Source: a virus. From it: DNA of 64,000 nt. The first letter of the stretch is position 1, and every line of letters begins with the position of its first letter. A program made the translations under genes and the position numbers. The stretch lies in the IMG/VR virus record IMGVR_UViG_3300047548_000930, positions 1 to 64,000 of that record, one strand, 5' to 3'. Below are positions 23,975-60,485 of the stretch, piece by piece. The notes under the pieces were generated by a model. That model searched no databases. It was not told where the DNA came from and saw nothing but the letters and a program-made list of their open reading frames with translations.

Positions 23975-23982
23975 AATAAATA
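23975..23982 (+). promoter_or_regulatory. late-type promoter (AATAAATA) abutting the fibre gene
   Basis: AATAAATA on the plus strand ends 5 bases before the ATG at 23988. There is no ribosome binding site, so a transcript starting about 6 bases after the octamer would be leaderless. Confidence 0.5.
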
Positions 23983-23987
23983 TTCAT

Positions 23988-26900
23988 ATGCAAACTATAT
24001 ACGCCTTCAGTTATAACCCTGTAATCGCAACTGGTACAAATACAACTGGTACCAACTGGCGCATGGCTTACCAACAGCCTATTATGCTTTACAAAGGAAC
24101 AACTAATCAAGTTAGGTTAGTTGTTTTCACTGTAAAACAAAAAGTAGTTGATCTAACAAATTATACTGTTCAAGTTCAACTTGTTGATCGTGAAACAGAG
24201 GAGCATTTTGTTACTAAAACAGCAAGTATTACTGCTCCAACTTCTGGTGTAGCTACAATTACATTTACTGAAGAAGATTTGCGTAATTTACAGAATAGAT
24301 TTTATCATTTAATTGCAAAATTAATAGGACCAAGTGACGGCAGTTCAGTTGTAGCTGGTGAAATACTTTACTTAGACGATAATTACGGGGCATTTACGCC
24401 AATTACAGTTGAAAATGCATGGAACTATAATCCAACAAGCATTTCAACTGTAGACGGAATTCCTGAAATTAGTTTTACAAATATTAGAGAAACACCTGAT
24501 AGTTTAGACGGTCAAGCAGGTAAATTTTTAAGAGTTAACTCTGCTAGCAATGCTATCGAATTTGCAGACTTTTTAAGTTTTGATAGAAGCATTATTCCAA
24601 ATATAAACGAAACATTTAATCTTGGTGACATTGGACGTCGATGGGGTATGGTATTCGCTAACAGAGTAAATGTTGGAAATATTTGTATATACGGCACACA
24701 ACTTGGTTGCGAAAACAGTCCTCAACTTGACTTTAGAGTATTAAGTCAAACTGTTAGAGTAACTGATAATTCTACTGATCCTGCACATCTTGTTGGTGAT
24801 GGTGTATTTGTTGAGTTTAATGATACAACACACGACAATGATGGTCCACGTTTAGAAGTATGGTACGGCGAACAAGATAATCCAAATGATCCCCCAGGGC
24901 AACACAGTTTAGATATTAGAGCGGCAGCAAATAGTTATGTTGAATTAGCAAGTCACGATCTTAATAGCTTTATCGGCATTGATGATATTGGGCCATTTAT
25001 ACAAACACAATGGCAAGCTGATCAAAGCAAATCATGGCGATTCCTAGGTGACGGCGAGCTTCGTTTACCAAGCATCGGCAGTAGAATAACTAGCGAAAAT
25101 AGTAAGTTACAAATTGTTATGACATTTGACGATATAAGATTAACAACTACCAGTGCCGATAATGTAACTACATATCAAACTATTTTTGATTCATCTGGAA
25201 AAACTTTTTTCCCTGGTGATTTATTGCCAGGAACTACAAATTTTCCTGATCCTGATCCAACAATACAATTTAATTTAGGTTCACCTGAACGTCCTTGGAA
25301 AGATTTATATCTAAGTAACAGCACCATTTATTTAGGTAATGTTCCGATAAGCGTAGATAACACTGGCACATTAACAGTTAATGGCAATGCTATTACTGGT
25401 GGTGAAGTTGTAACTTCGCCGGTTCAACCATATATTGAACTTACAAATGATCCATTTATATTCAACCCTTATGCAGGTAACTTAGTAACGTTTACTAAAG
25501 ATGATTATGGTAATCAAGTTGATCAAATTGATGTTAACGTAGCTATTACTCGTGCTAACAACAAGGGAATATACAATCCAAAACTTGAAGCAGATTGGGA
25601 TGACACAACTAGTGATGGGTTAAGTCCTGTTGGTACATTATGGAATAAAGATGGTTGGTCTGTTCTTACTAACTTAAATCAAAGAACTTATCTTAGCTTT
25701 TATGAAACATTCTTACGTTTTGGTAATAACGTTCTTACAGCCGAAGCAGTAATGTATGATACTGCAAATGACAAATATTATACATTTGATTTTACACAAT
25801 GGGGTAATTCCAACATAGGTGCACCATTAACTTATGTTAGAACGCAAATAGATCCAGTTACTGGTACTCAAATTGGTAGTGCAGTAACGTTTATTAAACC
25901 TGGTTATGCCGATCCAACTCAAATTAATGATCCAATTGATACAAACTTAACTATTGCAAGAGGCAACAATCAAAGTATATACAATATTGCACTTGAGCAG
26001 GGTTATAGTACAGCAGGTGATGGTCGCGACAGTCCAGAAGGTACTGAATGGAATGCTGATGGTTGGGGACAACTAAGAGATGTTACACAAAGAACTTATG
26101 ATACTTTCTATAGCGTATTAAACCAAGCAATTGGAGATAATGTTATAGGAAAAGAATTAATCATGCACGACATGATTAATGACAAGTATTATGCAGTTAA
26201 GTTTAGTAGTTGGACTCAAAACGGAGAAGGCGGCGGATTTAGTTATACTAGGCAATTACTAAACACAAATAATCTTTTTGTAAAACCAGACAATAATAAT
26301 TCTGTTATCGATATATTCGTTGAAGATGTTGGTGAAGCTTCCGGTATTGGTATTACTAGAGATAATAATAATGGCATCTATAACCCATATAGAGAAGAAG
26401 GTTGGAATAACAATCTAAGCCCAGTTGGAACATTATGGAATGTTGATGGATGGGATGATTTAAGTAATATTACTACTAGATCATACACTAACTTCTATGC
26501 AGCATACGGAAATGGACAATTAGGTAATCGTGTCCCTGGATCACGAGCAATAGTGTATATTCCAGAAACCAACAAATATTACGCAATACAATGGTTATCG
26601 TGGACACAAGGTGGCGGTGGTGGTTTCAGTTATTTGCGTTACGAATTGGATATAACTAAATTACAAGAAGGTGTTAAATTTGCCGACGGTACAGTATTAA
26701 AATCCGCAACAGGATTAGGTCGTGTCAAATCATCTACTTCAGGTAATCGTAGAATTGAGGAAGTTGTAGGTAGTAAAACTGTTTCAGTAACACAAGTAAC
26801 AACTCAAACTATAACTGCTACAGCTTCAAGAAGCGTAGTTGATGACAATAGATTCTGGGTATCAAATACTGCAACAGATATCGCAGCAATTATGAACAAT

Positions 26901-27392
26901 TTCAATGCATTTGGTATCCAAGATCAGTCTACTATACAGTTCAGTTTAGACAACAGCACATGGTACACTTATAGTAGTAGCTATAGCGGCACATCAACTG
27001 AAATAGGAGTATATTGCTCCGGGGGGCCATTCACTTACAACGAAGGCGATACTATCTACTTTAGATACGACACTGGTGCTGCTCCGGTAGTATGGTGGAC
27101 TACAGCAGACCTACCGGGTGGCAGTGCAGGTTTCCGCGGAGCAGTAATTGATTATCATGCTTATACTGGCGATGGAACTATCATTGGCACAATTCACATC
27201 GTGGATGACAGCGGGAACGAGAGTATCAGCCACACTGAAGTATCTAGCGGCAGCTCAGACAGCGAGAACGATGATTTGTGGTTAGTACAGAACGAAGGTA
27301 CTATCAGCTATCGCCGCATAGATGGTGAAGCAAAGACGCTAAAGATACACTGGACTGCCAAAGTGTTTTACGGCAGTGAGTTTTATGATTGA
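23988..27392 (+). CDS. large fibre-like virion protein with three internal repeats, 1134 aa
   Basis: The N-terminal 150 residues are compact (MLYKGTTNQVRLVVF, VQVQLVDRETEEHF). Then come fibre-like segments such as LGDIGRRWGMVFANRVNVG and GSPERPWKDLYLSNSTIYLG, typical of surface-decorating phage fibres. Residues about 519-890 hold three related units with IYNP, SPVGTLWN-x-DGW and KYY. The last 180 residues (GNESISHTEVSSGSS) have GC-richer, less biased codons than the rest, as if the tip were exchanged. Likely adsorption or long tail fibre. Confidence 0.75.
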   Translation: MQTIYAFSYNPVIATGTNTTGTNWRMAYQQPIMLYKGTTNQVRLVVFTVKQKVVDLTNYTVQVQLVDRETEEHFVTKTASITAPTSGVATITFTEEDLRNLQNRFYHLIAKLIGPSDGSSVVAGEILYLDDNYGAFTPITVENAWNYNPTSISTVDGIPEISFTNIRETPDSLDGQAGKFLRVNSASNAIEFADFLSFDRSIIPNINETFNLGDIGRRWGMVFANRVNVGNICIYGTQLGCENSPQLDFRVLSQTVRVTDNSTDPAHLVGDGVFVEFNDTTHDNDGPRLEVWYGEQDNPNDPPGQHSLDIRAAANSYVELASHDLNSFIGIDDIGPFIQTQWQADQSKSWRFLGDGELRLPSIGSRITSENSKLQIVMTFDDIRLTTTSADNVTTYQTIFDSSGKTFFPGDLLPGTTNFPDPDPTIQFNLGSPERPWKDLYLSNSTIYLGNVPISVDNTGTLTVNGNAITGGEVVTSPVQPYIELTNDPFIFNPYAGNLVTFTKDDYGNQVDQIDVNVAITRANNKGIYNPKLEADWDDTTSDGLSPVGTLWNKDGWSVLTNLNQRTYLSFYETFLRFGNNVLTAEAVMYDTANDKYYTFDFTQWGNSNIGAPLTYVRTQIDPVTGTQIGSAVTFIKPGYADPTQINDPIDTNLTIARGNNQSIYNIALEQGYSTAGDGRDSPEGTEWNADGWGQLRDVTQRTYDTFYSVLNQAIGDNVIGKELIMHDMINDKYYAVKFSSWTQNGEGGGFSYTRQLLNTNNLFVKPDNNNSVIDIFVEDVGEASGIGITRDNNNGIYNPYREEGWNNNLSPVGTLWNVDGWDDLSNITTRSYTNFYAAYGNGQLGNRVPGSRAIVYIPETNKYYAIQWLSWTQGGGGGFSYLRYELDITKLQEGVKFADGTVLKSATGLGRVKSSTSGNRRIEEVVGSKTVSVTQVTTQTITATASRSVVDDNRFWVSNTATDIAAIMNNFNAFGIQDQSTIQFSLDNSTWYTYSSSYSGTSTEIGVYCSGGPFTYNEGDTIYFRYDTGAAPVVWWTTADLPGGSAGFRGAVIDYHAYTGDGTIIGTIHIVDDSGNESISHTEVSSGSSDSENDDLWLVQNEGTISYRRIDGEAKTLKIHWTAKVFYGSEFYD
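25541..26660 (+). repeat. three degenerate protein repeats in the fibre gene
   Basis: Units of about 310-330 bases begin near 25541, 25951 and 26350. Each encodes [IL][AT]R-x-NN-x2-IYN, a Gly/Asp-rich turn, SP-x-GT-x-WN-x-DGW, a Thr-Tyr-x2-FY segment and a KYY strand, ending in WTQ-like text. DNA identity is modest, so the duplication is old. Confidence 0.75.
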
Positions 27393-32830: not shown

Positions 32831-34573
32831 TTAATCCCTTTTACCACGACCAATACCTTTTGTTGCTGCTTTAAGTTTTGGTTTTCTTGCAGTAAGAGGA
32901 GAAGGTTTTCTTTTTGGTAATTCTTTATCAGTTGAAATCTCATCTGGAGTTTCATCTGGTATTTCATTCCCTGTTGGAACCGGAGCTGATGCAGATTGTA
33001 ATCTAAAACCCATTCTTCCTTTTTGACCTGTAGCAAAATAGGTTTTATTAAAAAGAACTGGTTTTCCAGAAAATTCAGTAGGGAACTTTCCGTAGTAATC
33101 AAGTGTCATTGAATCACCACTGACAGTAGTTTTTGTAACTAGCTGTAAGTAGTTGTTATTGTTCAATGCTTTTAACATTGCAGCAGAAAAATCTGGGTCA
33201 TTATTTGCTGCGGTTAATACTTTATTAGCAACGGCTGCAAGCGCATGATAATATATTCTGTAATCATCTCTTGCAGCCGCATCTGGTCTAATTCCTTGAG
33301 ATTTAATCAAATCTCTTAATTTTGCATCTTTAACATCTTTAATGCTTCTGCTCTTGCGTGAAATAGTTAAAACAGCTTGTGCAGTTGCTTCATCTATGAT
33401 CTTGTACTCAATAGCTGCTTTGAGTATACCAGCGTCAGCTTTGTCCTTTGCTAGGTATCTCATTATGCGTACAGCTCGTGGATGTTCTTTTTCAAGTTCA
33501 GGTGTAACTTGAGCGTACACGCCAGCTAATGAACTAGCAGCGCCGCCGCCTGTATGCATTTTTGTGCTGATTTGTAATTGCTTACCATCAGCGGTTTTAA
33601 TTAAACTATCCCAAAGTTCTTGTCGTGTATTAGCACTGAATCTAACTTGTCCACCTACAAAGCTACCAATGCCTACAGCATTCATAGCTTTTTTAATATC
33701 GCCGCCAGTAAACTTACCGCTTAGTAATGCTAATGGTCCTAAGTATTCTGCACCATACTTACTAATAACAGTAGCATAATGTGTTCCGTTATTGATTGGT
33801 GCAATTTTACCAGACGCAGCAAGATCAACAGCTTGGTCCATGACGTCTGCTAGCTCTTCATCTGGTGTACCATGTGTAACTGATCTAATTCCGTTTTTAA
33901 CAGTTTTTGCTAATTCGTTCTTGTTCCTAAAAGTTTCATCCATAATGATGTCACTAGGTTTAATAGCAATAGATTCGCTGCTTGATCTCTCAGATTTATA
34001 TTTGTAACCGTTAAGTGTTAACCACTTTCCGTGTATAGTAGTATCTGGAACTTTATCAATATATCTTACCCAATATTGACTTTTATTATGCGGATCTAAT
34101 ACATGTGCAATAATTGCAGCTCTTGATCTAGCAGTTGGGTTATTATCTAGTTTCTTAACAGCGGCTTTTGGAATAGCAGCAGCAATAGCTTTTTCTAACT
34201 CTTCTGGTGAGTTAAACGCATTCTTATTCTTTGGGCTTATTACGCTAATTTCTTGTACAGTTAGTACGTCTTTTAAGTTTTGTGGATTAACGTATTGATC
34301 ACCCTGTACACGAGCAGTAACGCCTCTAGACTCATCTACAATAGACTCGGTTAGTCCAAGGTTCATTAACTTGTTTGGGGTTGAATTCTTAGCAGCAGAG
34401 CTGTGTAGTAATGGGGGAGGAAACTTATTTCCAAACTTCTTTGCTTGACGCTCTACTTCGCCAGGCTTAATATCTTTTGTAACACTCATTGAAAAACGAG
34501 GGTCATTCGCTTCTTTTTTATTCTTAGCGATATACCCAACAGCAGCAGTTTCAAATAAATCTTTGATTTTCAT
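32831..34573 (-). CDS. leader-tagged 580-residue protein (MKIKDLFE)
   Basis: MKIKDLFE|TAAVG fits the leader, cleavage expected after Glu8. Then comes DPRFSMSVTKDIKPGEVERQAKKFGNKFPPPLL, a segment I associate with marine phage proteins. The rest is mixed alpha/beta with SQYWVRYIDKVPDT and many Ala-rich helices, ending in a basic Pro-rich tail (KRKPSPLTARKPK). No catalytic motif recognised. A late promoter lies 20 bases upstream. Candidate internal head protein. Confidence 0.7.
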   Translation of the reverse strand: MKIKDLFETAAVGYIAKNKKEANDPRFSMSVTKDIKPGEVERQAKKFGNKFPPPLLHSSAAKNSTPNKLMNLGLTESIVDESRGVTARVQGDQYVNPQNLKDVLTVQEISVISPKNKNAFNSPEELEKAIAAAIPKAAVKKLDNNPTARSRAAIIAHVLDPHNKSQYWVRYIDKVPDTTIHGKWLTLNGYKYKSERSSSESIAIKPSDIIMDETFRNKNELAKTVKNGIRSVTHGTPDEELADVMDQAVDLAASGKIAPINNGTHYATVISKYGAEYLGPLALLSGKFTGGDIKKAMNAVGIGSFVGGQVRFSANTRQELWDSLIKTADGKQLQISTKMHTGGGAASSLAGVYAQVTPELEKEHPRAVRIMRYLAKDKADAGILKAAIEYKIIDEATAQAVLTISRKSRSIKDVKDAKLRDLIKSQGIRPDAAARDDYRIYYHALAAVANKVLTAANNDPDFSAAMLKALNNNNYLQLVTKTTVSGDSMTLDYYGKFPTEFSGKPVLFNKTYFATGQKGRMGFRLQSASAPVPTGNEIPDETPDEISTDKELPKRKPSPLTARKPKLKAATKGIGRGKRD

Positions 34574-34592
34574 TACATAAGTTCCTATGTAA

Positions 34593-34600
34593 TATTTATT
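34593..34600 (-). promoter_or_regulatory. late promoter (AATAAATA)
   Basis: AATAAATA on the minus strand, 19 bases before the ATG at 34573, with AGGAA between. It overlaps the stop codon of the upstream nucleotidase-like gene. Confidence 0.65.
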
Positions 34601-43830: not shown

Positions 43831-44506
43831 TTAGTTCCTCTAAGGTTGTAAACTTTTCAATTCTTTTTATGAATAGAGGGTTGATTAATGCGATAATGCA
43901 CAGCACGTCCTCACTATTGGTGTAAAAGTATGGTGTACCCCAATAGTTGCCTCTCTTAATTCGTTCAGTAGTTCTATCATCAAATGTAGAAGTATTTGGA
44001 TCATTATTAATTTGATCCACAATAGCACCTACTGCGTCTAGACCTATCTTTTGAATTGTTCTGTAATTGGTTGCCCAGTGTATACGATAACGCCACTTTT
44101 TGTGGGGTAAACGCTTAACAACAGAAGTAACTGCTCTAGGTAATTCTGGTTTAATAGCCGATTCCTCTAAAACAGTTTCTTCCATTTTGCCAACCTCAAT
44201 ATTGTTCCACTCTTTTAAGGAAGCAACTGAGATCTTCTCTAATACTGTAACAATGTCGTGACAGTAAATGGCTAAGGTATCGTACTCGGCACGTGTTCTA
44301 AACAAAGATGAGTCGAGGTTGTTATACAATGGCATTGTAACTTTTCGACTCATATTACGAAGGCGCGCCCAGTCCCTCACACGTTGATTATTTTCTAATC
44401 TAATAATGTGAGGGAATTCACTGTAATACTTTTTGTAGTTAGGCTTGAGGGAGATTTTAACTCCCTCAGAGCGCAACTGATCCATTAACGCGGATAATTC
44501 CATCAT
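43811..44506 (-). CDS. conserved hypothetical protein, 231 aa
   Basis: A soluble, basic protein. LPHKKWRYRIHWATNYRTI and FYTNSEDVLCIIALINPLFIKRIE stand out but match no family I recognise. It overlaps clpA by 41 bases; ATGs at 44506 and 44503 both touch a GGAG, and one at 44485 is possible. It might work with ClpA, for example as an adaptor, but only position suggests that. Confidence 0.65.
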   Translation of the reverse strand: MMELSALMDQLRSEGVKISLKPNYKKYYSEFPHIIRLENNQRVRDWARLRNMSRKVTMPLYNNLDSSLFRTRAEYDTLAIYCHDIVTVLEKISVASLKEWNNIEVGKMEETVLEESAIKPELPRAVTSVVKRLPHKKWRYRIHWATNYRTIQKIGLDAVGAIVDQINNDPNTSTFDDRTTERIKRGNYWGTPYFYTNSEDVLCIIALINPLFIKRIEKFTTLEELNEKTTS

Positions 44507-46736
44507 CTCCTACCACTTGATTATCGTCATGTTGTACAAATTCAATTTTGCCATCCACGAGCTTCGCTACAAGTGTAGCACCTGCAGGGATTTTGTCAAA
44601 TAGTATTTTGCGGGAAAGTGGAACCTTTACCAATTCATTAATCTTACGACTAATAGGACGGGCACCCATCTTTGCATCGTAGCCCTTCTCAATAATGAGA
44701 TCGACAACTGGCTCTTCCAAACGTAGCTTAATGCCACGATCACCAAGTAGTTCGTTAATCTCAACAATGAACTTAGCTACAATCTTGCGTAGGCTCATTT
44801 GATCTAGCTTACCAAACTTAACAATCCCATCAAGACGGTTGCGGAATTCTGGGCGGAAGTACTGTTGCACCGCTTTATCATCCTCTCCCTTTTTCTCAGG
44901 AGATCCAAAACCGATGCTGTTTCTTTCGCCTTCCTGAGCACCCAGATTGCTTGTCATAATAACAAGACAATTACGTGCATCAGCCTTCTTGCCGTTTGAA
45001 CCAGTTACCATACCTTCGTCCATGAGTGCAAGTAATGCAGTCATAACGTCGGGGTGTGCCTTTTCAACTTCATCAAATAGGATGATTGCATTTGGATTCT
45101 TAGTAATATCACTAATAAGCAGGCCGCCGCCTAGGTTACCATCATCGTAGCCAACATATCCTGGAGGTGCACCAATTAGACGTGCAACTGAGTGCTTTTC
45201 TTGGTATTCGCCCATGTCATAGCGTAGGAGCTTCATGCCCATATTCTCACCAAGCAGCTTGGCAAGTTCAGTCTTACCAGTACCAGTTGGACCTAGGAAG
45301 AGGAACACGCCCATTGGCTTGTTAATGCTCTTAAGTCCTGCCTTAGCAACGTATACCTTTTCAAGTACATTGTCAACAGCATTGTCCTGGCCAAACAGTT
45401 TAGACTTAATTGCGCTTTCAAGATCAACAGCAACTTCATCGTTCTTAGCATCAATTTGGCTAATTGGAATCTTAGTTGCAGTGCTAATCTCGTCAACAAT
45501 CATGCCGCGTGTAACAGCAAAGTTCTTGTGATCTTTTACTTTTTGCCTTGCACAAGCAGAGTCAATTAGATCAAGTGCCTTATCTGGAAGCTTCTTATCG
45601 CTTTGATAACGAACGGAAAGATCAACTGCTGCCTCAACTGCATCATCAGTAATAGTTGCAGTGTGGAACTTCTCAAAGTAAGGACGTAGCCCCTTTAGAA
45701 TTTCCTTAGCATGTGAAGGGGTTGGTTCATCAACAGTAAGCCTGTGGAAACGACGCATTAGCGCACGATCCTTTTCAAAGCTTGTGCTGTATTCTTCCCA
45801 TGTAGTTGAAGCAATTACCTTGATCTTGCCCTTAGCAAGTGCAGGCTTAATCATGTTAGAGAAGTCTACATCACTGTGACCGCCTGAGCCAGCACCGCGC
45901 ATCTGATGTGCTTCGTCTACGAAGAGGATTGCCTTACCCTTTTTAGATAGTGCATTAATTACTTCACGTAGCTTTTCTTCAAACTCGCCACGGAACTTTG
46001 AACCAGCAAGTAATGTACCAATGTCGAGATTGTATACACGCCAGTCCTTAAGGAACTCTGGCACGTTGCCGTTTACAATGTTAAGTGCAAGCCCTTCGGC
46101 AATTGCAGTCTTACCAACACCCGGGTCACCAACCATTAGTACGTTATTCTTATTACGGCGCGCAAGAATCTGAGCAATTTCAATTAACTCTACCTCACGA
46201 CCAATAACTGGATCAATTTCACCTTCTTCTGCCTTTTCATTAAGGTCAGTACAGTACTCTTCAAGTACTGCATCCGCGGCAGACATGTCAGATCCACTGC
46301 CTTTGGCATTGCGGTTATTGTGTGCTGTTACGATTTTAGCTTTATCCATACCATACTTGGTAAAATAATATGCTGCCCAACTATCTGTTTCATTGCTGAG
46401 ACTTAGATAAATGTCTACTGGCTGCATTACTTGGCGATTGCTAAAAAGAACCTGTGTAAATGCACGATTGAATACACGCTCTAGCGCATGTGTTTTATTA
46501 GGCTGCTCGACGCTATCACCTGATAAGTATGTTTGTTCTGACAAATGACGGGTAATTTCTTCAACCAGTTCAGGCTGATCAACTCCAGCATCTATGAGAA
46601 TGTTTTTAAATCCATCATTGACAACAAGTGCCAACGCTAAGTGTTCGGTTGTAACCAATTTATGATTAGCAGCTTTGGCGATTTCAATTGCATGTGCAAC
46701 GATACGGTCAATTTCTGGATTATTTTGAAGTGCCAA
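44466..46736 (-). CDS. clpA: ClpA-type AAA+ unfoldase with ClpP-binding loop
   Basis: 756 residues, full ClpA length. N-terminal Clp repeat domain (residues 1-140), D1 with GDPGVGKT (about 203), VDEAHQM and RR; D2 with [16 protein letters not shown] (about 482), [14 protein letters not shown] and [22 protein letters not shown] at about 605-611 is the I-G-F/L loop that docks on ClpP. No clpP is in the window, so it may use host ClpP to redirect proteolysis. A sigma70-type promoter lies upstream. Confidence 0.94.
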
Positions 46737-46810: not shown

Positions 46811-47665
46811 TTAAGTATTTAAACCGTTTTGAATTGAAACAATTTGTTTTACCAATTCAATCTGCTCGTTCGTTAGATTAGTTGGAACAGATACATTGAT
46901 ATGTAAGTATTGAGCACCAATGAACTTATTACGGTTCATGCTTGGCAAACCTTCGCTTGGTAAACGTAGTACTGTTCCATTTTGGCTTCCCGCTGGTATT
47001 GTTACCTTAACCCTCTTACCACGAATAGTTACGAACTCAATAGTCGATCCAAGTGTCGCTTTAAAACAATCTATGGTAATATTAGAATGTAAGTCCTCGT
47101 TAACACGATTGAACCTTTCAGTTGGTAATACTGTCACTTCAACCATTAGATCACCAGCTGGTTGATCTGTGTAAGTGTTTTGTCCCATACCTCTGTATGT
47201 AATAACAGCACCATCATGTATACCAGGTGGAATTTTAATTTCTACTTGCTTATTGCCAGTGCCGGCATTAAGGTCAATAGTTTTAGTTTGTTCTTGTAAT
47301 ATTGATTCTAGTGGAATTGATATACGAATACGTATATTGCTATTTCTTGGTTTACGTCTTCCGCCTGGAAATCCTGCAGCTTGTGCGAAGATGTTCATAA
47401 AATCTTCGTTTGAGAATATATCTTCAAAGTGGAAATGTGTACCACTACGATATGCGTTTGCTCTTGGGTCAAACCCGCCCATGTCATACTGTGCTTTCTT
47501 ATTAGGGTCACTTAGTATGTCATTTGCTTGATTTATTTCTTTAAACTTTTCTGGATCACCGCCAAGATCAGGGTGATACTTTTTAGCTAGTTTACGATAA
47601 GCTGATTTAATTTCATCAGCAGTTGCAGTACGGCTAACGCCAAGTATTTCATAAGGATCACGCAT
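46811..47665 (-). CDS. DnaJ/CbpA-type J-domain co-chaperone
   Basis: 284 residues. J domain at 1-65 (DPYEILGV, AYRKLAKKYHPDLGG with HPD, SDPNKKAQYDMGG), short Gly-poor linker, then two beta C-terminal domains (NIRIRISIPLESIL, KQVEIKIPPGIHDGAVITYRGMGQ, VKVTIPAGSQNGTVLRL). No zinc-finger repeats, so it is CbpA-like rather than true DnaJ. It would stimulate host DnaK. It sits between the clpA promoter and the holin-like genes. Its start codon lies in a perfect inverted repeat. Confidence 0.92.
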   Translation of the reverse strand: MRDPYEILGVSRTATADEIKSAYRKLAKKYHPDLGGDPEKFKEINQANDILSDPNKKAQYDMGGFDPRANAYRSGTHFHFEDIFSNEDFMNIFAQAAGFPGGRRKPRNSNIRIRISIPLESILQEQTKTIDLNAGTGNKQVEIKIPPGIHDGAVITYRGMGQNTYTDQPAGDLMVEVTVLPTERFNRVNEDLHSNITIDCFKATLGSTIEFVTIRGKRVKVTIPAGSQNGTVLRLPSEGLPSMNRNKFIGAQYLHINVSVPTNLTNEQIELVKQIVSIQNGLNT

Positions 47666-47696
47666 GATATATTAATTTATGCTATCATGCGTGATC
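47656..47696 (-). promoter_or_regulatory. 14-base inverted repeat enclosing the dnaJ start, with late-type octamer in the loop
   Basis: Arms 47656-47669 and 47683-47696 are perfectly complementary over 14 bases, with a 13-base loop. The dnaJ ATG (47665) is inside the downstream arm. The loop and adjoining base hold CATAAATT (47674-47681, minus), a late-promoter-like octamer. In read-through RNA the start would be paired; RNA starting in the loop would be open and nearly leaderless. Confidence 0.6.
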
Positions 47697-47707
47697 TATC
47701 AAGTAAA

Positions 47708-48286
47708 TTATTTGTCTCTTCCAGTACCAACTGGACGCTTTTTAACTACTTTTTTAGTAGCGGCTACAGTTTTAGAAACTGGGCTTATGGTTCCAACGGG
47801 TACTAAGGTTGGTATTGAATTGTTTGAAGCAGAATACTTTGTAAACTTTTCAATCGCACGACTACCAAACCAGAAACCAATGATGGCTGAGAATATTGCC
47901 ATTGTTTCACCATCCCAAATTACAAGTAATAGATCGGCAGTTGGGGTTCCGCGTTCTACTAATACCCAAAACGCTGCTATTTTAATACCCACAAATACAA
48001 GGAAGAAAGCGTAGGTAATGGTTGGCCTGATAGAAGCTCGTAATGCTGCCCAAAAGCCTGTATACTCAATATCACTATCATGCTTGCGAACAGATTCTCC
48101 CTCGAGAGCATCCGCCTTAATTTCCTCAATCTGTAACTGTAATATAAGTCCTTCTCTAGCTGCATCCATCTTGATTTTAGTGAGATCGATTTCATGTTTA
48201 TAATCCAGCTTTTTTTCAAATATCTTGATGATATTTGGAAGCAAACTAGATATCACTCCAAATATCGTAGACAATAATGTAATCAT
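47708..48286 (-). CDS. 3-TM holin-like membrane protein, 192 aa
   Basis: An N-terminal hydrophobic helix (ITLLSTIFGVISSLLPNII), a charged coiled region (residues 25-70), then FWAALRASIRPTITYAFFLVFVGIK and a further membrane segment around IFSAIIGFWFGSRAI. This layout, including the RPTITY helix, resembles the GTA/3TM holin family. Basic tail (KKVVKKRPVG). With the next gene it probably controls lysis timing. Confidence 0.7.
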   Translation of the reverse strand: MITLLSTIFGVISSLLPNIIKIFEKKLDYKHEIDLTKIKMDAAREGLILQLQIEEIKADALEGESVRKHDSDIEYTGFWAALRASIRPTITYAFFLVFVGIKIAAFWVLVERGTPTADLLLVIWDGETMAIFSAIIGFWFGSRAIEKFTKYSASNNSIPTLVPVGTISPVSKTVAATKKVVKKRPVGTGRDK

Positions 48287-48648: not shown

Positions 48649-48656
48649 TATTTATT
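48649..48656 (-). promoter_or_regulatory. late promoter (AATAAATA)
   Basis: Minus-strand AATAAATA, 26 bases before the ATG at 48622, with AAGGAG between; suited to a lysis cassette. Confidence 0.65.
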
Positions 48657-49180: not shown

Positions 49181-49756
49181 TTAAGCGACACCTGGTATTT
49201 CTCCTAAATCAAGAGTTTCTTCACCACCTAGAGTTTGATCAAACTCGGAATCATTTTCTTTTTGAACGTTAGCTTGTTGATCAATGCCTTGCTGATAAGC
49301 ATTTTGAATATCTTCTAGATCCATATCTTCGCCGGCAATTTCTAAGCTACCTTGCTCAATGTCGGCAATTAATTCTTTTGGCATCTTTATTTCTACTATC
49401 CAAATTGGAACATCGATAAGTTTGCCTTTTTTACTGCCATCTGGTCTAAAATCATCGGGTGTTTTAATCTTTGTTGGTATTTGGATACTAGTTTTTTCAA
49501 ATGTTACTTTGCAGCCATATGGTAGCAAACGCTCTGCACCGCGTGGATCGGGCATCATTTTACGTGGCCACATAAACTTGCAACTAACCCAGTACTTTTC
49601 AATTACTGGTCCTTCAACCAGCTCACCTTTTTCCCAGTTATCGAATACATAAAGGTCAAGTTCGTCGATAACTCGTTCAAAATCTAGCAATACATTTAAG
49701 CTACTATTGCTCATATATATTGATTTAGTGTTTTTAATTGCGTCTTTAATATCCAT
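49181..49756 (-). CDS. conserved hypothetical protein, 191 aa
   Basis: A mixed protein with YWVSCKFMWPRKMMPDPRGAERLLPYGCKVTFEKT and IPIWIVEIKMPKELI-type strands, then an acidic Gln-rich tail. It seems to be a conserved partner of the next gene. AATAAATA ends 5 bases upstream of the ATG and there is no ribosome binding site, so a late message would be leaderless. Confidence 0.65.
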   Translation of the reverse strand: MDIKDAIKNTKSIYMSNSSLNVLLDFERVIDELDLYVFDNWEKGELVEGPVIEKYWVSCKFMWPRKMMPDPRGAERLLPYGCKVTFEKTSIQIPTKIKTPDDFRPDGSKKGKLIDVPIWIVEIKMPKELIADIEQGSLEIAGEDMDLEDIQNAYQQGIDQQANVQKENDSEFDQTLGGEETLDLGEIPGVA

Positions 49757-49761
49757 ACGAG

Positions 49762-49769
49762 TATTTATT
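49762..49769 (-). promoter_or_regulatory. late-type promoter (AATAAATA) abutting its gene
   Basis: AATAAATA 5 bases before the ATG at 49756, the same spacing as at 23975 on the other strand. Confidence 0.5.
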
Positions 49770-52933: not shown

Positions 52934-53310
52934 TATTGCTTCTCCTCAAACGGCGCATCCTCAATTGGCACCCAACGCCCATCAACACGCCCTTCAACAT
53001 TTAAATTAGCATCGTTCATAGCATTGTCAACCTTTTCCTCAATGGAGAGTTGGTCACCCATACGCCGCGCCGTTTCTAATTTATGCCACAGTTTGAACTC
53101 TTTAGATTCAGCCATCTTCCTAAACGCGATGCGCTTATTTTCAGATTGATGTCTTGTTTCGGCACTTTCCCCTGTTGCTCCGCTTGCTCTGTGAACGCAT
53201 CTTACTTTAGTAGAACGCTTATTAACATTTTGACCACCAGGTCCACCACTCTTAACATATTGGAAATCGCAGTCATTTGCAGTAACACTGAAAAGCAATT
53301 CTCTTGTCAT
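52933..53310 (-). CDS. RF-1-domain peptidyl-tRNA hydrolase (ArfB/YaeJ-like)
   Basis: 125 residues. GGPGGQNVNKRSTKVRC carries the GGQ peptide-release motif (residues 25-27) with the KR-S-T-x-V-R text of single-domain release factors. There is no codon-reading domain, so it would free stalled ribosomes without a stop codon, as ArfB does. The C-terminal tail is acidic rather than the basic tail of ArfB, so ribosome binding may differ. The start at 53310 has AGGA 7 bases before it. Confidence 0.82.
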   Translation of the reverse strand: MTRELLFSVTANDCDFQYVKSGGPGGQNVNKRSTKVRCVHRASGATGESAETRHQSENKRIAFRKMAESKEFKLWHKLETARRMGDQLSIEEKVDNAMNDANLNVEGRVDGRWVPIEDAPFEEKQ

Positions 53311-54074
53311 TTGTATCTTCCTCTTCGCCAATTCTGTTTAGTATAATTTGATAGTTCTTCCAAAGCAATTAGTTTATTTTCAACCCCATTTGTGATCCAT
53401 GCTTTTTTACCCTTGCGTGGATTGTTTTTATGATATTCGCGCATCTTAGCAGCGTGGGCTAAATCTTTTTCTTTGCTATGACGAATTTTTGCCATTTGTT
53501 GCATATGATCTTTGCCTAGACTGGTATTACGACCAAGCGTCCATCCTTCATTAAGATACTTTTCAAGTTCATTAGGAGATATAGATAATTGTTCGTTTTC
53601 TCTTTTAATCCATTTCTTATTATGGTTTCCGCCTCGTTGATATGGTAAACCTTTATTCATAGTAATTGGATCAAAATCTTCTTTTTTAATATAGATGATA
53701 TTTTCTATGTCATCTTTCATATGGCACCATATCTTACCATATGAAGCATTATATTCTCCTTTTGAATATTTAGATACAGTTGCCCTAAACACTTCGTATT
53801 TTCTTGAAGTTAATGCCTGCTCCTTAAATCTAATCAATGCTGAAATCATTTTATAAGTGTAGGTAGAGTAAACGCATCTAACTAAAAGCATATGAGCAAT
53901 ATAATGCTCTCGGTGTGTCAATAATACTAAATTTGTCTTTTCATTTGATCCGCCTAATGATCTTGGAATGATGTGATGAGAATCAAACACTCCATTCTTT
54001 TTAGATCTACTTTTACTTTGCGCTGCTTGAATTAAATTCACATACCATTTGTAATATTTGTTTGGAATAAACAT
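53307..54074 (-). CDS. HNH homing endonuclease
   Basis: 255 residues. The N-terminal HNH motif reads FDSHHIIPRSLGG, NEKTNLVLLTHREHYIAHMLL. After it come repeated DNA-recognition modules with KIRHSKEKDLAHAAKMREYH and KGKKAWITNGVENKLI, as in free-standing phage homing endonucleases. Inserted between the small gene at 54132 and the release-factor-like gene, overlapping the latter by 4 bases. The leader has an inverted repeat with a late promoter in its loop. Confidence 0.88.
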   Translation of the reverse strand: MFIPNKYYKWYVNLIQAAQSKSRSKKNGVFDSHHIIPRSLGGSNEKTNLVLLTHREHYIAHMLLVRCVYSTYTYKMISALIRFKEQALTSRKYEVFRATVSKYSKGEYNASYGKIWCHMKDDIENIIYIKKEDFDPITMNKGLPYQRGGNHNKKWIKRENEQLSISPNELEKYLNEGWTLGRNTSLGKDHMQQMAKIRHSKEKDLAHAAKMREYHKNNPRKGKKAWITNGVENKLIALEELSNYTKQNWRRGRYK

Positions 54075-54086
54075 AAGTTGTGTTCC

Positions 54087-54121
54087 TTTTTTGTCTATTA
54101 TTTAGCATTTTAGACAAAAAA
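54087..54121 (-). promoter_or_regulatory. inverted repeat with late promoter in the loop (HNH gene leader)
   Basis: Perfect 11-base arms 54087-54097 and 54111-54121, 13-base loop containing CTAAATAA (54098-54105, minus). The downstream arm runs into the ribosome binding site AAGGAA. Early read-through RNA folds and hides the site; late RNA starting in the loop lacks the first arm. A poly-U side also makes it a possible terminator. Confidence 0.65.
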
Positions 54122-54131
54122 GTAATAAAAC

Positions 54132-54362
54132 TTATTTCATCACCTTTAATAAAAATAGCAAAGCAGCATCTTCGTTTTCAAATAGTAGATAGCGTTCACC
54201 GTGATAGCGTCCGTTGTCTTTAATTTCTATTTCAAACTTTGCGCCGTGTTTTACTAATTCCTCATCAAGCGTTCTATAATTTGTTTCCCGGTGTGCTACT
54301 GCAAACCGTTCCCACCACTCCGGCACTTTTTCTCCAGGATTGAAGAGATGTAGTTTATACAT
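54132..54362 (-). CDS. small protein of the acidic-A-x-x-F-x-L family, 76 aa
   Basis: Ends ERYLLFENEDAALLFLLKVMK, a close match to the family ending in the 54856-55074 product (FENDEDATMFALRWS). The N-terminal half (NPGEKVPEWWERFAVAHRETNY) is aromatic. Coupled by TAATG to the Pth2-like gene. Confidence 0.65.
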   Translation of the reverse strand: MYKLHLFNPGEKVPEWWERFAVAHRETNYRTLDEELVKHGAKFEIEIKDNGRYHGERYLLFENEDAALLFLLKVMK

Positions 54363-57023: not shown

Positions 57024-58041
57024 ATAATTGTTGGACCATCTTGGCACCTTGAGCAATTGACTTCTTGTCTGCTTCGGCACGTGCCTTTGCTTCTGGTGTC
57101 TCAGCCTTATCACGCTTTGGTGCATCAATTGCACCTTGTGCCTTTTTCATATAGATCTCAACGAACTTGTTTAAAAAGTCCTCTGCATTGAGGTATGGTG
57201 TAAGTATTCCCTTACCATACATATTGTTCATTTCAAAACTTCTTGCCATACCTTTTACGGCATTAACAAGATTTCTAATCTTTACTTCCTTAAGGTCACT
57301 GCCAGGATGCTTCTCCAATAGCGGATCTATCTTTGCATTCTTTGGATCACGGAATGTAATCTCTTTATACTCGTTATCAAATATATCACGCACAAATGTT
57401 TCAACATTAGTTGTGATAGTTTTTAGTTCGTAATCTTTTTTAGTTGCAGCATATGGCACACGACGACCATTTTGCTCTTTATACTGCACTCCTGAATGTT
57501 GCAAGTTAAGCATAAGCATTTCGCCAATAACAGCAAACATATTGCCATTAAGCATACCTTTAACACCACGCTCAGGTGTTGCTCTATATCGTCCCCAAGT
57601 AGCAAGTGGTTCTGGATGAGGCATTATATCAATTTGTACCCATGCATCACCTCCAATATTTAGAATTGGATGTCCAGGGGTTGATTCAGGATGTACGTAA
57701 CTTGGATTAGTTGCTTTGGCAAACTCGCCAAATTGCTTATTCCAAAAATATTGTATTTGCCCAGTAGTCATATTTGGTTTGTCTTTTAATTCAGGTACGA
57801 CAATTTGTAAATCAATATCACCATAAATTTTATCTTCTGGATCTACATCGTGATAAGCACTGCTACCTGTTGGATGCCCTATCTTAACACTCGGGATACC
57901 TGTTTGTTTGGCATAGACATTAAAATCAGCAATAAACTTTTCCATTATTGCCAGAGCTTTTTTGACGGTACTTGGATGAATAACAGTACCTTGTGTTACA
58001 GTAGTGGTCCAGCCACCCTCAAATAATTCATGAATACGCAT
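57007..58041 (-). CDS. leader-tagged nucleotidyltransferase-like protein (MRIHELFE)
   Basis: 344 residues. MRIHELFE|GG fits the L-x-E leader. GHPTGSSAYHDVDP...YGDIDLQIVVP has the GS and D-x-D of nucleotidyltransferase folds, and WVQIDIMPHPEP the third acidic residue. It resembles the first nucleotidyltransferase domain of the 2073-residue protein. The C-terminal half is helical and Lys-rich. Candidate packaged head enzyme located away from the main leader block. GTAAATAC sits 4 bases before its ATG. Confidence 0.75.
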   Translation of the reverse strand: MRIHELFEGGWTTTVTQGTVIHPSTVKKALAIMEKFIADFNVYAKQTGIPSVKIGHPTGSSAYHDVDPEDKIYGDIDLQIVVPELKDKPNMTTGQIQYFWNKQFGEFAKATNPSYVHPESTPGHPILNIGGDAWVQIDIMPHPEPLATWGRYRATPERGVKGMLNGNMFAVIGEMLMLNLQHSGVQYKEQNGRRVPYAATKKDYELKTITTNVETFVRDIFDNEYKEITFRDPKNAKIDPLLEKHPGSDLKEVKIRNLVNAVKGMARSFEMNNMYGKGILTPYLNAEDFLNKFVEIYMKKAQGAIDAPKRDKAETPEAKARAEADKKSIAQGAKMVQQLFANNS

Positions 58042-58045
58042 GTGT

Positions 58046-58053
58046 GTATTTAC
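58046..58053 (-). promoter_or_regulatory. late-type promoter (GTAAATAC) abutting its gene
   Basis: Minus-strand GTAAATAC, 4 bases before the ATG at 58041, no ribosome binding site. Confidence 0.45.
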
Positions 58054-58068
58054 CCGTTTTTAATAGAA

Positions 58069-58076
58069 TTAAATAT
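58069..58076 (+). promoter_or_regulatory. late-type octamer (TTAAATAT) abutting its gene
   Basis: Plus-strand TTAAATAT, 4 bases before the ATG at 58081, no ribosome binding site. Weaker match than its divergent partner. Confidence 0.35.
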
Positions 58077-58080
58077 CATT

Positions 58081-59151
58081 ATGTTATCAGTTAACCAAAC
58101 ATGGGACCCTTTGGAAGTTTGTATTGTAGGAAAAATGTATGATCCCAAATCTTTTAATTTTATATCTAGCAGTAGAGTTAGACAAGTTCTGGAAAAAATT
58201 GCAATTGAAACTGAGGAAGATTTTCAAACTCTAATAAAGCTTTTGAATAAATTTAATGTTGAATTAATTAGACCCAATGCTAAATTAATTGATAACAAGT
58301 TAATGCCGCCTCCGGTCACTCCTAGAGATCATACTGCTATGATTGGAAATAAATTCTTTATCGATCCCAGAGTAGATTTAAATTTCTATCAGCCAATTGT
58401 TGATTATGTGCAACAATATAATAAAATTAATTGGGTCAAAAACATTAATACAGCAACTATACTAAGACTAGGAAAAGATTTGCTGTATGGGCAGATGAAC
58501 TTATCCCCAAGCAATGTTTGGACTAGTATCAGAAAAGATAATTGGCCAATAGATACTCCAAAAAATCTAGAGGATAGTTTTAATACCAAAGCAATAATTG
58601 ATTATCAAAAATCTATTTCAACTTGGTTTAAGGATTATCGCTGCCATTTTTATCCTAAAGAAAATCATCTAGACGGGTGCATGGCTGTTATTAAACCTGG
58701 ATTGCTGATTAGCAATAAAGAACTAGATCACAAAAGTAGATTTAAAGATTGGGATATACTTTATCTTGATACAACTGTTAAAGACAAAATGATCAACAAT
58801 TATTCTTATATGGAATTAAGAAAAAAGAATAGAGGTAAATGGTGGATACCTGGTGAAGAATCAAACGATGACTTTATAGAGTTTGTTGATTCTTACCTAA
58901 GCGCATGGACTGGCTATATCGAAGAAAGCCAATTTGATCTAAATCTATTAATGATAGATGAATGCAATGCAGTTTGCACAAGTGCAAACGATATGATACA
59001 AAGGAAGTTTGATGAATATGGTATCAACTTGCATATAGTAAACTTTAGGCATAGCTTGTTCTTTGACGGAGGTATACATTGTCTAACAAGCGACATAAAA
59101 AGAAAGGGAGAGCTAATTGATTTAGCTCTCCCTCAAGAAAGAAATGTTTAG
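58081..59151 (+). CDS. glycine amidinotransferase-like enzyme (copy 2)
   Basis: 356 residues, paralogue of the 19135-20214 product. The N-terminal LEVCIVGKMYDP, TPRDHTAMIGN, ENHLDG (His196) and DGGIHCLTSDIKRKG (Cys334) align with copy 1, and the last part matches the FHCWTCDVRRRG-type end of arginine:glycine amidinotransferases better than copy 1 does. The start at 58081 replaces an earlier in-frame start at 58030 that overlaps the divergent gene. It lies alone, away from the 18.6-21.5 kb operon, on the opposite strand. Confidence 0.75.
   Translation: MLSVNQTWDPLEVCIVGKMYDPKSFNFISSSRVRQVLEKIAIETEEDFQTLIKLLNKFNVELIRPNAKLIDNKLMPPPVTPRDHTAMIGNKFFIDPRVDLNFYQPIVDYVQQYNKINWVKNINTATILRLGKDLLYGQMNLSPSNVWTSIRKDNWPIDTPKNLEDSFNTKAIIDYQKSISTWFKDYRCHFYPKENHLDGCMAVIKPGLLISNKELDHKSRFKDWDILYLDTTVKDKMINNYSYMELRKKNRGKWWIPGEESNDDFIEFVDSYLSAWTGYIEESQFDLNLLMIDECNAVCTSANDMIQRKFDEYGINLHIVNFRHSLFFDGGIHCLTSDIKRKGELIDLALPQERNV
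59105..59133 (-). terminator. terminator of the TAXI gene, inside the opposite coding region
   Basis: A 12-base perfect stem AGGGAGAGCTAA / TTAGCTCTCCCT with a 5-base loop. On the minus strand it is followed by TTCTTTTT. It lies in the last codons of the plus-strand amidinotransferase gene. Confidence 0.7.
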
Positions 59152-59155
59152 TTTA

Positions 59156-60088
59156 TTACTTTAGTTCGCCAAAGGTCTTCTTAATAGCAGGCTTTGCCTT
59201 TGCTACAGCAGTAATAAAGTCCTCAAGTGCCTTCTGATTACCGTTAAAATATTCAGTGTTTACATAAATGCCAGCCTGCCAAGCAACAGTATCTGATCCA
59301 CTAAACCAACCCGACTGTAGGTTCTGTGGATAAGTGCCACTTGGAATAGTCTGCCACTTATACAGTGCCTTGCCATCAATGTTGGTAGCATCGTTAAAGT
59401 CCATGTCATTGGCACCAACTAGGTTAATACCGTCACCAAAGTCAGTGTCTACTTGTACAACTGTGGCATTACCAACAGCAGCAGGAACAAGCATACAAGT
59501 AGTGGTGTTAGAAGCGACGCTAGCCATAGCGATAGCACCTTCCTCGTTAGTAACTTGGACTTCTGCATAACCCTTGTCCTCTGCAATAAAATTCTGCCAA
59601 ATTAGCCAAGCACCAGAACCACTGGCACCAAGAGCAACACTCTTGCTATTATCCCCAGCAAGGTCGCTTAGGTCATCGACACCCGACTCCTTGCTGCAAA
59701 GTACATGCAGAAATTCGCGTGGACCTTGTCCAATAATACGAAGCTTAGTGGCTGCGGCTGGGTTCTTACGCTTTAGTAGAACTGCACCATCTGGCTGTCC
59801 AATAAAAGCATGGCATGCCTCCCCATTTGCCACAGCTTCAGGTGTAGCGGGTGTTAGAACAGTTCGTTCAATGTTGTCCCATGTACCCTTGCTGGTAACA
59901 ACATTAATTTCGGCATTGCGACTATCTCGCATAAAACTGGCAATGTACTGCCCAGTTTCATGGTAAGGACGACCTTCGCTGCCTGTGCAAAGGTTAATCT
60001 TCATCTTCTCAACAGCGTTGGCAGTACCCGCAAATAGAGCAAGACCAACAGCGGCACTAAACATAAAAGTAGACTTAAGCATTAACAT
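59156..60088 (-). CDS. TAXI-family solute-binding protein with signal peptide
   Basis: From ATG 60088 (AAGGA just upstream) it begins MLMLKSTFMFSAAVGLALF, ending in the AxA site TANA, a signal peptide. The mature part shows the TAXI (TRAP-associated) pattern: LCTGSEGRPYHETGQYIA, TSKGTWDNIERT, HVLCSKESGVDDLSDLAG, VALGASGSGAWLIWQNF. It would bind a small anion or amino-acid-like ligand in the periplasm and could feed a host TRAP transporter. 310 residues. Codon use is GC-richer than the phage average, which suggests transfer from a host. Confidence 0.82.
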   Translation of the reverse strand: MLMLKSTFMFSAAVGLALFAGTANAVEKMKINLCTGSEGRPYHETGQYIASFMRDSRNAEINVVTSKGTWDNIERTVLTPATPEAVANGEACHAFIGQPDGAVLLKRKNPAAATKLRIIGQGPREFLHVLCSKESGVDDLSDLAGDNSKSVALGASGSGAWLIWQNFIAEDKGYAEVQVTNEEGAIAMASVASNTTTCMLVPAAVGNATVVQVDTDFGDGINLVGANDMDFNDATNIDGKALYKWQTIPSGTYPQNLQSGWFSGSDTVAWQAGIYVNTEYFNGNQKALEDFITAVAKAKPAIKKTFGELK

Positions 60089-60485
60089 TTTCCTTCTTTT
60101 CATCGACATGCTTGCAGGACCGCCGGAATTGGAAGCCTGGGCATGTACAATCATAACGACCGTGATCCAGCGTCACAGTATATGTTTTTCCTTTGGACCC
60201 CTGGACAGTCCAAATTTTTGTTGTTGGCTCAGTGTTACTTGGTTGAGTAAAAACTGCGTCATCAACAGATACAATACGCTCTATATCAATTACACGCAAG
60301 TCAAAGTTTGGCTCATTTGTTGTTAAACCAATTTGACCAGGCTTAATAGCACGATGATCGCTAACCACTCTACCTGTGTAGGTGTTAAATTCTGGAATGT
60401 GTACATAACTCGCATATGCCTTCCTCATTGGCCAAACTGGATTCTTAACGGTAATAGTAATTGTGTCACCTGCATTAAGCTGCAT
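60075..60485 (-). CDS. SWIM-type zinc-finger protein, 136 aa
   Basis: The C-terminal YDCTCPGFQFRRSCKHV is a SWIM zinc finger (C-x-C-x-n-C-x-H). The N-terminal half is beta-like (DTITITVKNPVW, YTGRVVSDHRAIKPG). Start ATG 60485 with AAGGAG 8 bases upstream. SWIM fingers bind DNA or protein. It overlaps the TAXI gene by 14 bases. Confidence 0.72.
   Translation of the reverse strand: MQLNAGDTITITVKNPVWPMRKAYASYVHIPEFNTYTGRVVSDHRAIKPGQIGLTTNEPNFDLRVIDIERIVSVDDAVFTQPSNTEPTTKIWTVQGSKGKTYTVTLDHGRYDCTCPGFQFRRSCKHVDEKKENVNA

What the first reader, a model, noticed from the sequence alone, without database searches (positions are those of the whole stretch)
47656..47696. dnaJ start codon locked in a perfect 14-base inverted repeat with a promoter-like loop
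The ATG of the J-domain gene is inside a perfect 14+14 inverted repeat with CATAAATT at the loop, the same design as in the homing endonuclease leaders but for a chaperone gene. It could be a late switch, an RNA thermometer that opens on heating, or a protein-binding operator. No ribosome binding site is visible.
Basis: partly seen in the sequence, partly recalled or inferred. Interest (0 to 1): 0.7.

Follow-up and report, generated by a model that had tools for sequence, protein, structure and literature searches.

The report
Promoter-in-loop hairpin masking phage dnaJ start
A giant phage's chaperone gene dnaJ begins inside a strong hairpin whose loop carries the gene's own promoter-like box, so transcripts running in from upstream genes should be untranslatable while those starting at the box should begin almost exactly at the start codon; phage T4 uses this trick for lysozyme, but here it sits on a chaperone gene with no ribosome-binding site.

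Summary
On the minus strand, 14-nt arms at 47683-47696 and 47656-47669 match perfectly around a 13-nt loop holding CATAAATT, and the dnaJ ATG (47663-47665) lies in the 3' arm. The repeat exceeds chance and is kept in the two close relatives found while silent sites in dnaJ diverge 45-49%. It is too stable for an RNA thermometer. The best reading is a T4-type (genes e, soc, 49, I-TevI) read-through block. Late transcripts of the upstream head genes fold and hide the AUG. Transcripts starting at the loop box lose the 5' arm and begin about 3 nt before the AUG, which would explain the missing ribosome-binding site. The same device occurs on other genes of this phage group with unrelated arm sequences, including one near-twin (AATAAATA in the loop, AUG in the stem, no SD). 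That argues against a sequence-specific operator. New here are the chaperone gene, the masked AUG instead of a masked SD, and the predicted near-leaderless product. Leaderless start architecture turns out to be common for dnaJ, clpA and some late genes in related jumbo phages. Whether the loop box is read by the late sigma factor or by host sigma-70 is unresolved. No transcript or protein data exist.

The parts
47683..47696 (-). 5' arm of the hairpin on the mRNA (GATCACGCATGATA), in the 42-nt gap between the upstream gene and dnaJ
   Evidence: perfect complement of 47656-47669. Kept identical in L009 and 12 of 14 in L010.
47670..47682 (-). 13-nt loop GCATAAATTAATA
   Evidence: One substitution in each kin, outside the box.
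47674..47681 (-). CATAAATT, promoter-like box in the loop: a variant of the phage's late box NATAAATA, or a sigma-70-like -10 (TAAATT)
   Evidence: Identical in the three kin. Equivalent place to AATAAATA in G001 90783.
47656..47669 (-). 3' arm of the hairpin (TATCATGCGTGATC), containing the start codon and codons 2-4 (M R D P)
47663..47665 (-). dnaJ start codon ATG, no Shine-Dalgarno sequence upstream
   Evidence: AUG unpaired probability 0.001 at 37 C in the read-through RNA.
47668..47668 (-). Predicted transcription start (sixth base after the box), giving a 3-nt leader AUC. Inferred, not mapped
   Evidence: Spacing known for T4 late promoters (general knowledge), supported by the d=5 peak of boxes before SD-less ATGs.
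47697..47702 (-). TTGATA, possible -35 element 17 nt before TAAATT. Not kept in L010 (TTGCAG)
46811..47665 (-). dnaJ: J-domain plus DnaJ C-terminal domain, 284 aa
   Evidence: PF00226, PF01556.
44466..46736 (-). clpA-like gene downstream, with its own promoter-like CTTGAC-16-CTATAT (from 46795) and SD
   Evidence: dnaJ-clpA order also in Atu_ph07 and, with a deformylase gene between, in Phosso.
47708..48286 (-). Upstream co-directional gene whose transcripts would read into dnaJ (phrog_6637, unknown function)
48649..48656 (-). AATAAATA late box of the upstream operon, a source of read-through transcripts
49762..49769 (-). AATAAATA late box 5 nt before the ATG of a virion structural gene, a further source of read-through

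Best explanation
The repeat is an RNA hairpin that makes dnaJ translation depend on where its mRNA starts. Transcripts from promoters of the upstream structural genes (late boxes at 48649 and 49762) run into dnaJ, fold the 14-bp stem and lock the AUG in it, so dnaJ is silent on those mRNAs. A promoter whose core box lies in the loop starts transcription just inside the 3' arm, about 3 nt before the AUG. That mRNA lacks the 5' arm, cannot fold the stem, and is translated as a near-leaderless message, so no Shine-Dalgarno sequence is needed. Shown here: the repeat, its stability, its conservation, the position of box and AUG, the lack of SD, and recurrence of the design on other genes of the group. 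Inferred: that the box is a promoter, its start point, read-through, and the translational effect. The sigma factor is uncertain. I lean to the phage late sigma factor (about 60:40 over host sigma-70); the confidence given here covers the hairpin logic with either sigma factor.
For: (1) Stability: z = -5.2; AUG unpaired 0.001 in the read-through RNA against about 0.5 in a transcript starting at the predicted point. (2) Conservation: silent 4-fold sites of dnaJ differ by 45% (L009) and 49% (L010), yet the 5' arm differs at 0/14 and 2/14 positions and the loop at 1/13 each. In L010 the flanking DNA just upstream differs at 8/17 positions and the stem gains two outer pairs, keeping dG near -22 kcal/mol. 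(3) Recurrence with unrelated arms: G001 90783-91667 has AATAAATA in the loop of an 11-bp perfect stem with the ATG in the 3' arm and no SD. HNH gene 54074 and the nuclease-like gene G001 75066 have GCTAAATA in the loop. 4 of 25 distinct box leaders pass at the shuffle floor p = 0.003, where about 0.1 is expected. In the 338-kb relative G003, 3 of 42 boxes pass p <= 0.015. (4) Late boxes NATAAATA are 18-fold enriched before starts in this group (31 against 1.7). They fall in two classes: 4-7 nt from an SD-less ATG, and 13-30 nt with an SD in many cases. In G003, 14 of 14 boxes within 8 nt lack an SD against 16 of 35 farther ones, with a peak at exactly 5 nt. (5) Relatives encode a late sigma factor (phrog_12791). 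(6) No terminator-like site was found on the minus strand between 47708 and the hairpin. (7) The mechanism is established for T4 e, soc, 49 and I-TevI (PMC3014915, PMC2988022).
Against: No RNA or protein data. No compensatory base changes exist, because the 3' arm never varies in the three kin. The only varying inner pairs are one G-U replacement and one C-A mismatch opposite the A of AUG. CATAAATT is not the canonical late box: NATAAATT is not enriched apart from dnaJ, and a sigma-70-like alternative fits. Only three phages carry the element, and two of them (window and G002) are nearly identical over much of their length. The late sigma gene was not found in the three contigs, which are fragments. 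Atu_ph07 and Phosso dnaJ have no such hairpin. In L010 the predicted AUG accessibility hardly changes between read-through (0.34) and short transcript (0.40).
Confidence: 0.65

Rival explanations
1. DNA operator: the inverted repeat flanks the -10 region and binds a repressor or activator, as CIRCE does for HrcA at other chaperone genes. The RNA hairpin is a by-product.
For: The arms lie exactly between a possible -35 and the -10 and over the start site. Each arm is itself a near-palindrome (ATCA-N4-TGAT). Chaperone genes are classic targets of such operators (general knowledge).
Against: Apart from one 1-mismatch match inside the L010 dnaJ gene, no further copy of the arm core within 1 mismatch, and none of the full arm within 2, occurs in the 67, 95 and 61 kb contigs. 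In L010 both 5' arm changes break the DNA symmetry while one of them keeps an RNA G-U pair. The same layout recurs with unrelated arm sequences.
Confidence: 0.15
2. A sub-version of the best explanation, not exclusive of it: same hairpin logic, but the loop promoter is a host sigma-70 promoter, so dnaJ is early and the hairpin keeps late read-through mRNA of the head genes from making DnaJ. This is the reverse of the T4 timing.
For: TTGATA-17-TAAATT. Many viral dnaJ genes at 31-41% identity have CTTGACA-16/17-YATAAT ending 6-7 nt before the ATG (18 of 40 loci at 6-8 nt, SD in 3 of 40). Neighbouring clpA has CTTGAC-16-CTATAT, close to the alphaproteobacterial consensus cTTGAc-N16-cnATAA (PMC4167512).
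Against: In L010 the -35 has decayed to TTGCAG while GCATAAATTA is fully kept. The nearest outgroup (L015-L024) lacks a -35.
Confidence: 0.27
3. RNA thermometer opening on heating.
For: Heat-shock class gene, AUG in a stem.
Against: AUG unpaired probability stays at or below about 0.012 up to 70 C and the stem is still -8 kcal/mol there.
Confidence: 0.02
4. Mutational by-product: a quasi-palindrome perfected by template switching at the dnaJ start, without function.
For: Perfect arms, one of them coding. Such events are known (general knowledge).
Against: Kept at 12/14 in a relative with 49% divergence at 4-fold sites, with energy preserved. Coincidence with a box in the loop, and recurrence.
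Confidence: 0.05
5. mRNA processing or stability element (for example RNase III cleavage of the read-through mRNA, leaving a near-leaderless dnaJ mRNA).
For: A stable stem at a gene border. G001 encodes a protein matching a PHROG annotated as a kinase that regulates RNase III.
Against: 14 bp is short for RNase III (general knowledge). It would not explain the conserved loop box.
Confidence: 0.07

Closest known systems
T4 gene e (lysozyme), soc, 49 leaders
   Same: Inhibitory stem at the initiation region of long transcripts, with a late promoter placed so that late transcripts lack the 5' strand (PMC3014915).
   Different: T4 e keeps a Shine-Dalgarno sequence on the late mRNA. Here there is no SD, the AUG itself is in the stem, and the predicted leader is about 3 nt. 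The gene is a chaperone, and the box is CATAAATT rather than TATAAATA.
I-TevI, I-TevII, I-TevIII, SegB and Aeh1 MobE homing endonuclease leaders
   Same: Late promoter within a hairpin that hides the translation start from read-through mRNA (PMC2988022). The window's HNH gene 53307-54074 is of this type.
   Different: Those hide an SD of an endonuclease. dnaJ is not a mobile gene of that kind.
CIRCE / HrcA operator of groE and dnaK operons
   Same: Inverted repeat at the promoter/leader of chaperone genes (general knowledge).
   Different: Sequence and arm/spacer lengths differ (14-13-14 against 9-9-9). No sign of a repeated operator. Not filed there.
Leaderless mRNAs of Alphaproteobacteria (Sinorhizobium meliloti, 171 mapped starts at the AUG)
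   Same: Promoter box abutting an AUG without SD (PMC3616915).
   Different: There the leaderless state is not combined with a masking hairpin, as far as the passages read show. The phage dnaJ start is predicted, not mapped.

Membership tests
T4-type promoter-in-hairpin translational switch | Stable stem in read-through RNA occluding the SD and/or AUG | tested here: met
   AUG paired >99%.
T4-type promoter-in-hairpin translational switch | Promoter between the arms so that its transcript lacks the 5' arm | tested here: inconclusive
   Box CATAAATT is in the loop and conserved but differs from the phage's consensus NATAAATA at the last base. Start not mapped.
T4-type promoter-in-hairpin translational switch | Upstream co-directional transcription reading through | tested here: inconclusive
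   Co-directional late genes with boxes at 48649 and 49762, and no terminator-like site found in front of the hairpin. Read-through itself not measured.
T4-type promoter-in-hairpin translational switch | Late sigma factor (gp55 type) present | tested here: inconclusive
   Found in Atu_ph07, Phosso and three related contigs, not in the fragmentary window contig or its two kin.
T4-type promoter-in-hairpin translational switch | Translation rises when the stem is broken | not testable with these tools
   Needs a reporter.
RNA thermometer | Stem melts in the physiological range | tested here: not met
CIRCE operator | TTAGCACTC-N9-GAGTGCTAA | tested here: not met
   Arm sequence and spacing read directly.
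Leaderless mRNA | 5' end at or within a few nt of the AUG, no SD | tested here: inconclusive
   No SD; box 8 nt before the ATG predicts a 3-nt leader. 5' end not mapped.

The most novel reading that the evidence does not exclude
In a group of T4-related jumbo phages, chaperone genes (dnaJ, clpA) and a class of late genes are made from leaderless mRNAs. At dnaJ (and at least one other gene) a start-codon hairpin with the promoter in its loop makes leaderless initiation the only productive route: the same AUG is silent on polycistronic mRNA and active when it is at the 5' end.
Probability: 0.4. Interest if true: 0.72.

Novelty: new variant of a known kind. Interest (0 to 1): 0.52.

Why it matters
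T4 lysozyme and homing endonucleases use hairpins to silence read-through mRNA and keep an SD for the late mRNA. Here the masked element is the AUG itself and the active mRNA is predicted to be leaderless, so the switch would select between two modes of ribosome initiation. It also puts a phage chaperone under tight start-site control, which bears on why jumbo phages carry dnaJ and clpA. The wider pattern (boxes exactly 5 nt before SD-less ATGs; viral dnaJ and clpA with -10 elements 6-7 nt before the ATG) makes leaderless translation in these phages directly testable by 5' end mapping.

Tried and rejected
RNA thermometer: rejected on computed stability. Intrinsic terminator: no T-run after the stem on either strand by reading of the sequence, and no scanner hit there. 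Operator with multiple copies: none found before other genes in 224 kb. Covariation: tested, none available. More relatives: dnaJ, clpA and upstream-gene scans plus a hairpin DNA pattern in viral contigs gave only the same two kin; the species-genome scan gave only distant dnaJ genes (best hits 32-34% identity over most of the query; higher values only in short segments). Heat-shock sigma (RpoH) promoter: considered because of CTTG; it cannot be told apart from sigma-70 by sequence (the overlap is noted in PMC3616915 and PMC4167512). No structure prediction was run; the protein is an ordinary J-domain protein.

Full report
Observation. Arms 47656-47669 and 47683-47696 are perfectly complementary with a 13-nt loop. 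On the minus strand the order is 5' arm GATCACGCATGATA, loop GCATAAATTAATA, 3' arm TATCATGCGTGATC, and the ATG of the 284-aa dnaJ gene (46811-47665, minus) lies in the 3' arm. Pfam finds a J domain and a DnaJ C-terminal domain. The fold is -21.7 kcal/mol with z = -5.2. No repeat of this quality arose in 40 simulated windows. There is no Shine-Dalgarno sequence before the ATG.

Where it is. The window is part of a 67-kb virus record. DNA polymerase and ClpA place it near the jumbo phages Agrobacterium phage Atu_ph07 and Sinorhizobium phage Phosso. Those also carry dnaJ with clpA closely downstream (adjacent in Atu_ph07, with a deformylase gene between in Phosso) but without the hairpin. In the window dnaJ follows virion structural genes on the same strand, with a 42-nt gap and no terminator-like site on the minus strand between.

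Conservation. Two relatives share the element: L009 (contig G002, dnaJ 90% identical) and L010 (contig G001, 84%). At 4-fold degenerate sites dnaJ differs from the window by 45% and 49%. The 5' arm, which is non-coding, differs at 0 and 2 of 14 positions, the loop at 1 of 13 in each, while the 17 nt just upstream differ at 8 of 17 in L010. L010 has one G-U pair and one C-A mismatch in the stem, gains two outer pairs, and keeps about -22 kcal/mol. There are no double compensatory changes because the 3' arm, which is coding, never varies. The conservation therefore points to selection on the arm and the loop but does not by itself prove RNA pairing.

Not a thermometer. The AUG stays paired (unpaired probability at most about 0.012) up to 70 C.

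What the loop box is. In the three contigs, NATAAATA is 18-fold enriched in the 53 nt before start codons (31 seen, 1.7 expected), which marks it as the late-type promoter of this group. A late sigma factor (phrog_12791) is encoded by Atu_ph07, Phosso and three related contigs; it was not found in the fragmentary window contig or its two kin. The dnaJ box CATAAATT differs at the last base, and NATAAATT is not enriched elsewhere. It is therefore either a variant late box or the -10 of a sigma-70-like promoter (TTGATA-17-TAAATT). For the late type: the -35 has decayed in L010 while GCATAAATTA is invariant, and the same place in a near-twin leader holds a canonical AATAAATA. For sigma-70: viral dnaJ genes at 31-41% identity often have CTTGACA-16/17-YATAAT ending 6-7 nt before the ATG.

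Recurrence. The strongest argument for the mechanism is that the layout occurs on other genes with unrelated arm sequences. G001 90783-91667, a 294-aa protein without family match, has CTGTTCAACAT-AATAAATAtgatatc-ATGTTGAACAG, again with the box in the loop, the ATG in the 3' arm and no SD. The HNH endonuclease gene at 54074 has GCTAAATA in the loop and its SD in the arm. The nuclease-like gene G001 75066 has GCTAAATA in the loop of a 15-bp stem. Of 25 distinct box leaders, 4 pass at the floor of the flank-shuffle test where about 0.1 is expected. In the 338-kb relative G003, 3 of 42 pass p <= 0.015. A sequence-specific operator would not predict this.

Leaderless starts. The boxes fall into two distance classes. 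Those within 8 nt of the ATG lack an SD, and the peak at 5 nt puts the expected start exactly on the A of ATG. In G003, 14 of 14 such boxes lack an SD against 16 of 35 farther ones. For dnaJ the 8-nt distance predicts a 3-nt leader, which explains why no ribosome-binding site is visible. Leaderless mRNAs are documented in Alphaproteobacteria (171 in S. meliloti, PMC3616915). Viral dnaJ genes elsewhere show the same habit: 18 of 40 distinct loci have a sigma-70-like promoter ending 6-8 nt before the ATG and only 3 have an SD, against 17 of 288 and 130 of 288 for other genes in the same loci; nearly all of those 17 are the neighbouring clpA.

Mechanism and known relatives. The working model is that of T4 gene e, soc, 49 and I-TevI (PMC3014915, PMC2988022): read-through RNA is self-inhibited, and RNA started between the arms is free. 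The differences are the chaperone gene, the masked AUG in place of a masked SD, and the predicted near-leaderless product. Steps shown: anatomy, stability, conservation, recurrence. Steps inferred: promoter activity, start point, read-through, translational effect, timing.

Limits. Only three phages carry the dnaJ hairpin, two of them nearly identical over much of their length. All functional statements rest on sequence.

Noticed in passing
window 49762-49769 (-) and 23975-23982 (+); G003 (338-kb relative): Late boxes AATAAATA sit exactly 5 nt before the ATG of a virion structural gene (49181-49756) and of a 1134-aa gene (23988-27392), with no SD. G003 has 9 such genes at 5 nt. Predicted leaderless late mRNAs.
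   Followed up: partly
L015-L056 clpA starts, e.g. L038 around 3888: clpA of related viruses has a compact leader NATAAATAC-TTGACA-N16-TATATT-6 nt-ATG: a late box fused to a sigma-70-type promoter directly before an SD-less ATG. Nearly all non-dnaJ leaderless-type promoters found in these loci belong to clpA.
   Followed up: partly
window 53307-54135 (-): HNH homing endonuclease gene with a 25-nt (88%) hairpin, GCTAAATA in the loop and the SD in the 3' arm: a T4 I-TevI-type leader.
   Followed up: partly
G001 90783-91667: Unknown 294-aa gene with the same start-codon hairpin design as dnaJ (AATAAATA in the loop, 11-bp perfect stem, no SD).
   Followed up: partly
window 34573-34600 (-) and G001 near 43716: After a late box, an 8-bp hairpin TTACATA-GGAAC-TTATGTAA presents the SD-like AGGAA in its loop just before the ATG. 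Conserved in both phages.
   Followed up: no
window 46811-47665 against G002: dnaJ is 15.5% divergent from G002 while the dnaJ-clpA spacer shows no difference and clpA is about 100% identical: a recombination junction near the 3' end of dnaJ.
   Followed up: no
window 59156-60154 (-): ORF of 332 aa with a signal-peptide-like start that looks by eye like a periplasmic TAXI/TRAP-type solute-binding protein, unusual in a phage. No family search was run.
   Followed up: no
window 19135-20214 (-) and 58030-59151 (+): Two ORFs with similar starts (CIVGKMYDPKSFNFISSSRVRQVLE / CMLGKTYNPNVFSYIDDSRIRNILE) that look like paralogues, possibly amidinotransferase-like. No search was run.
   Followed up: no
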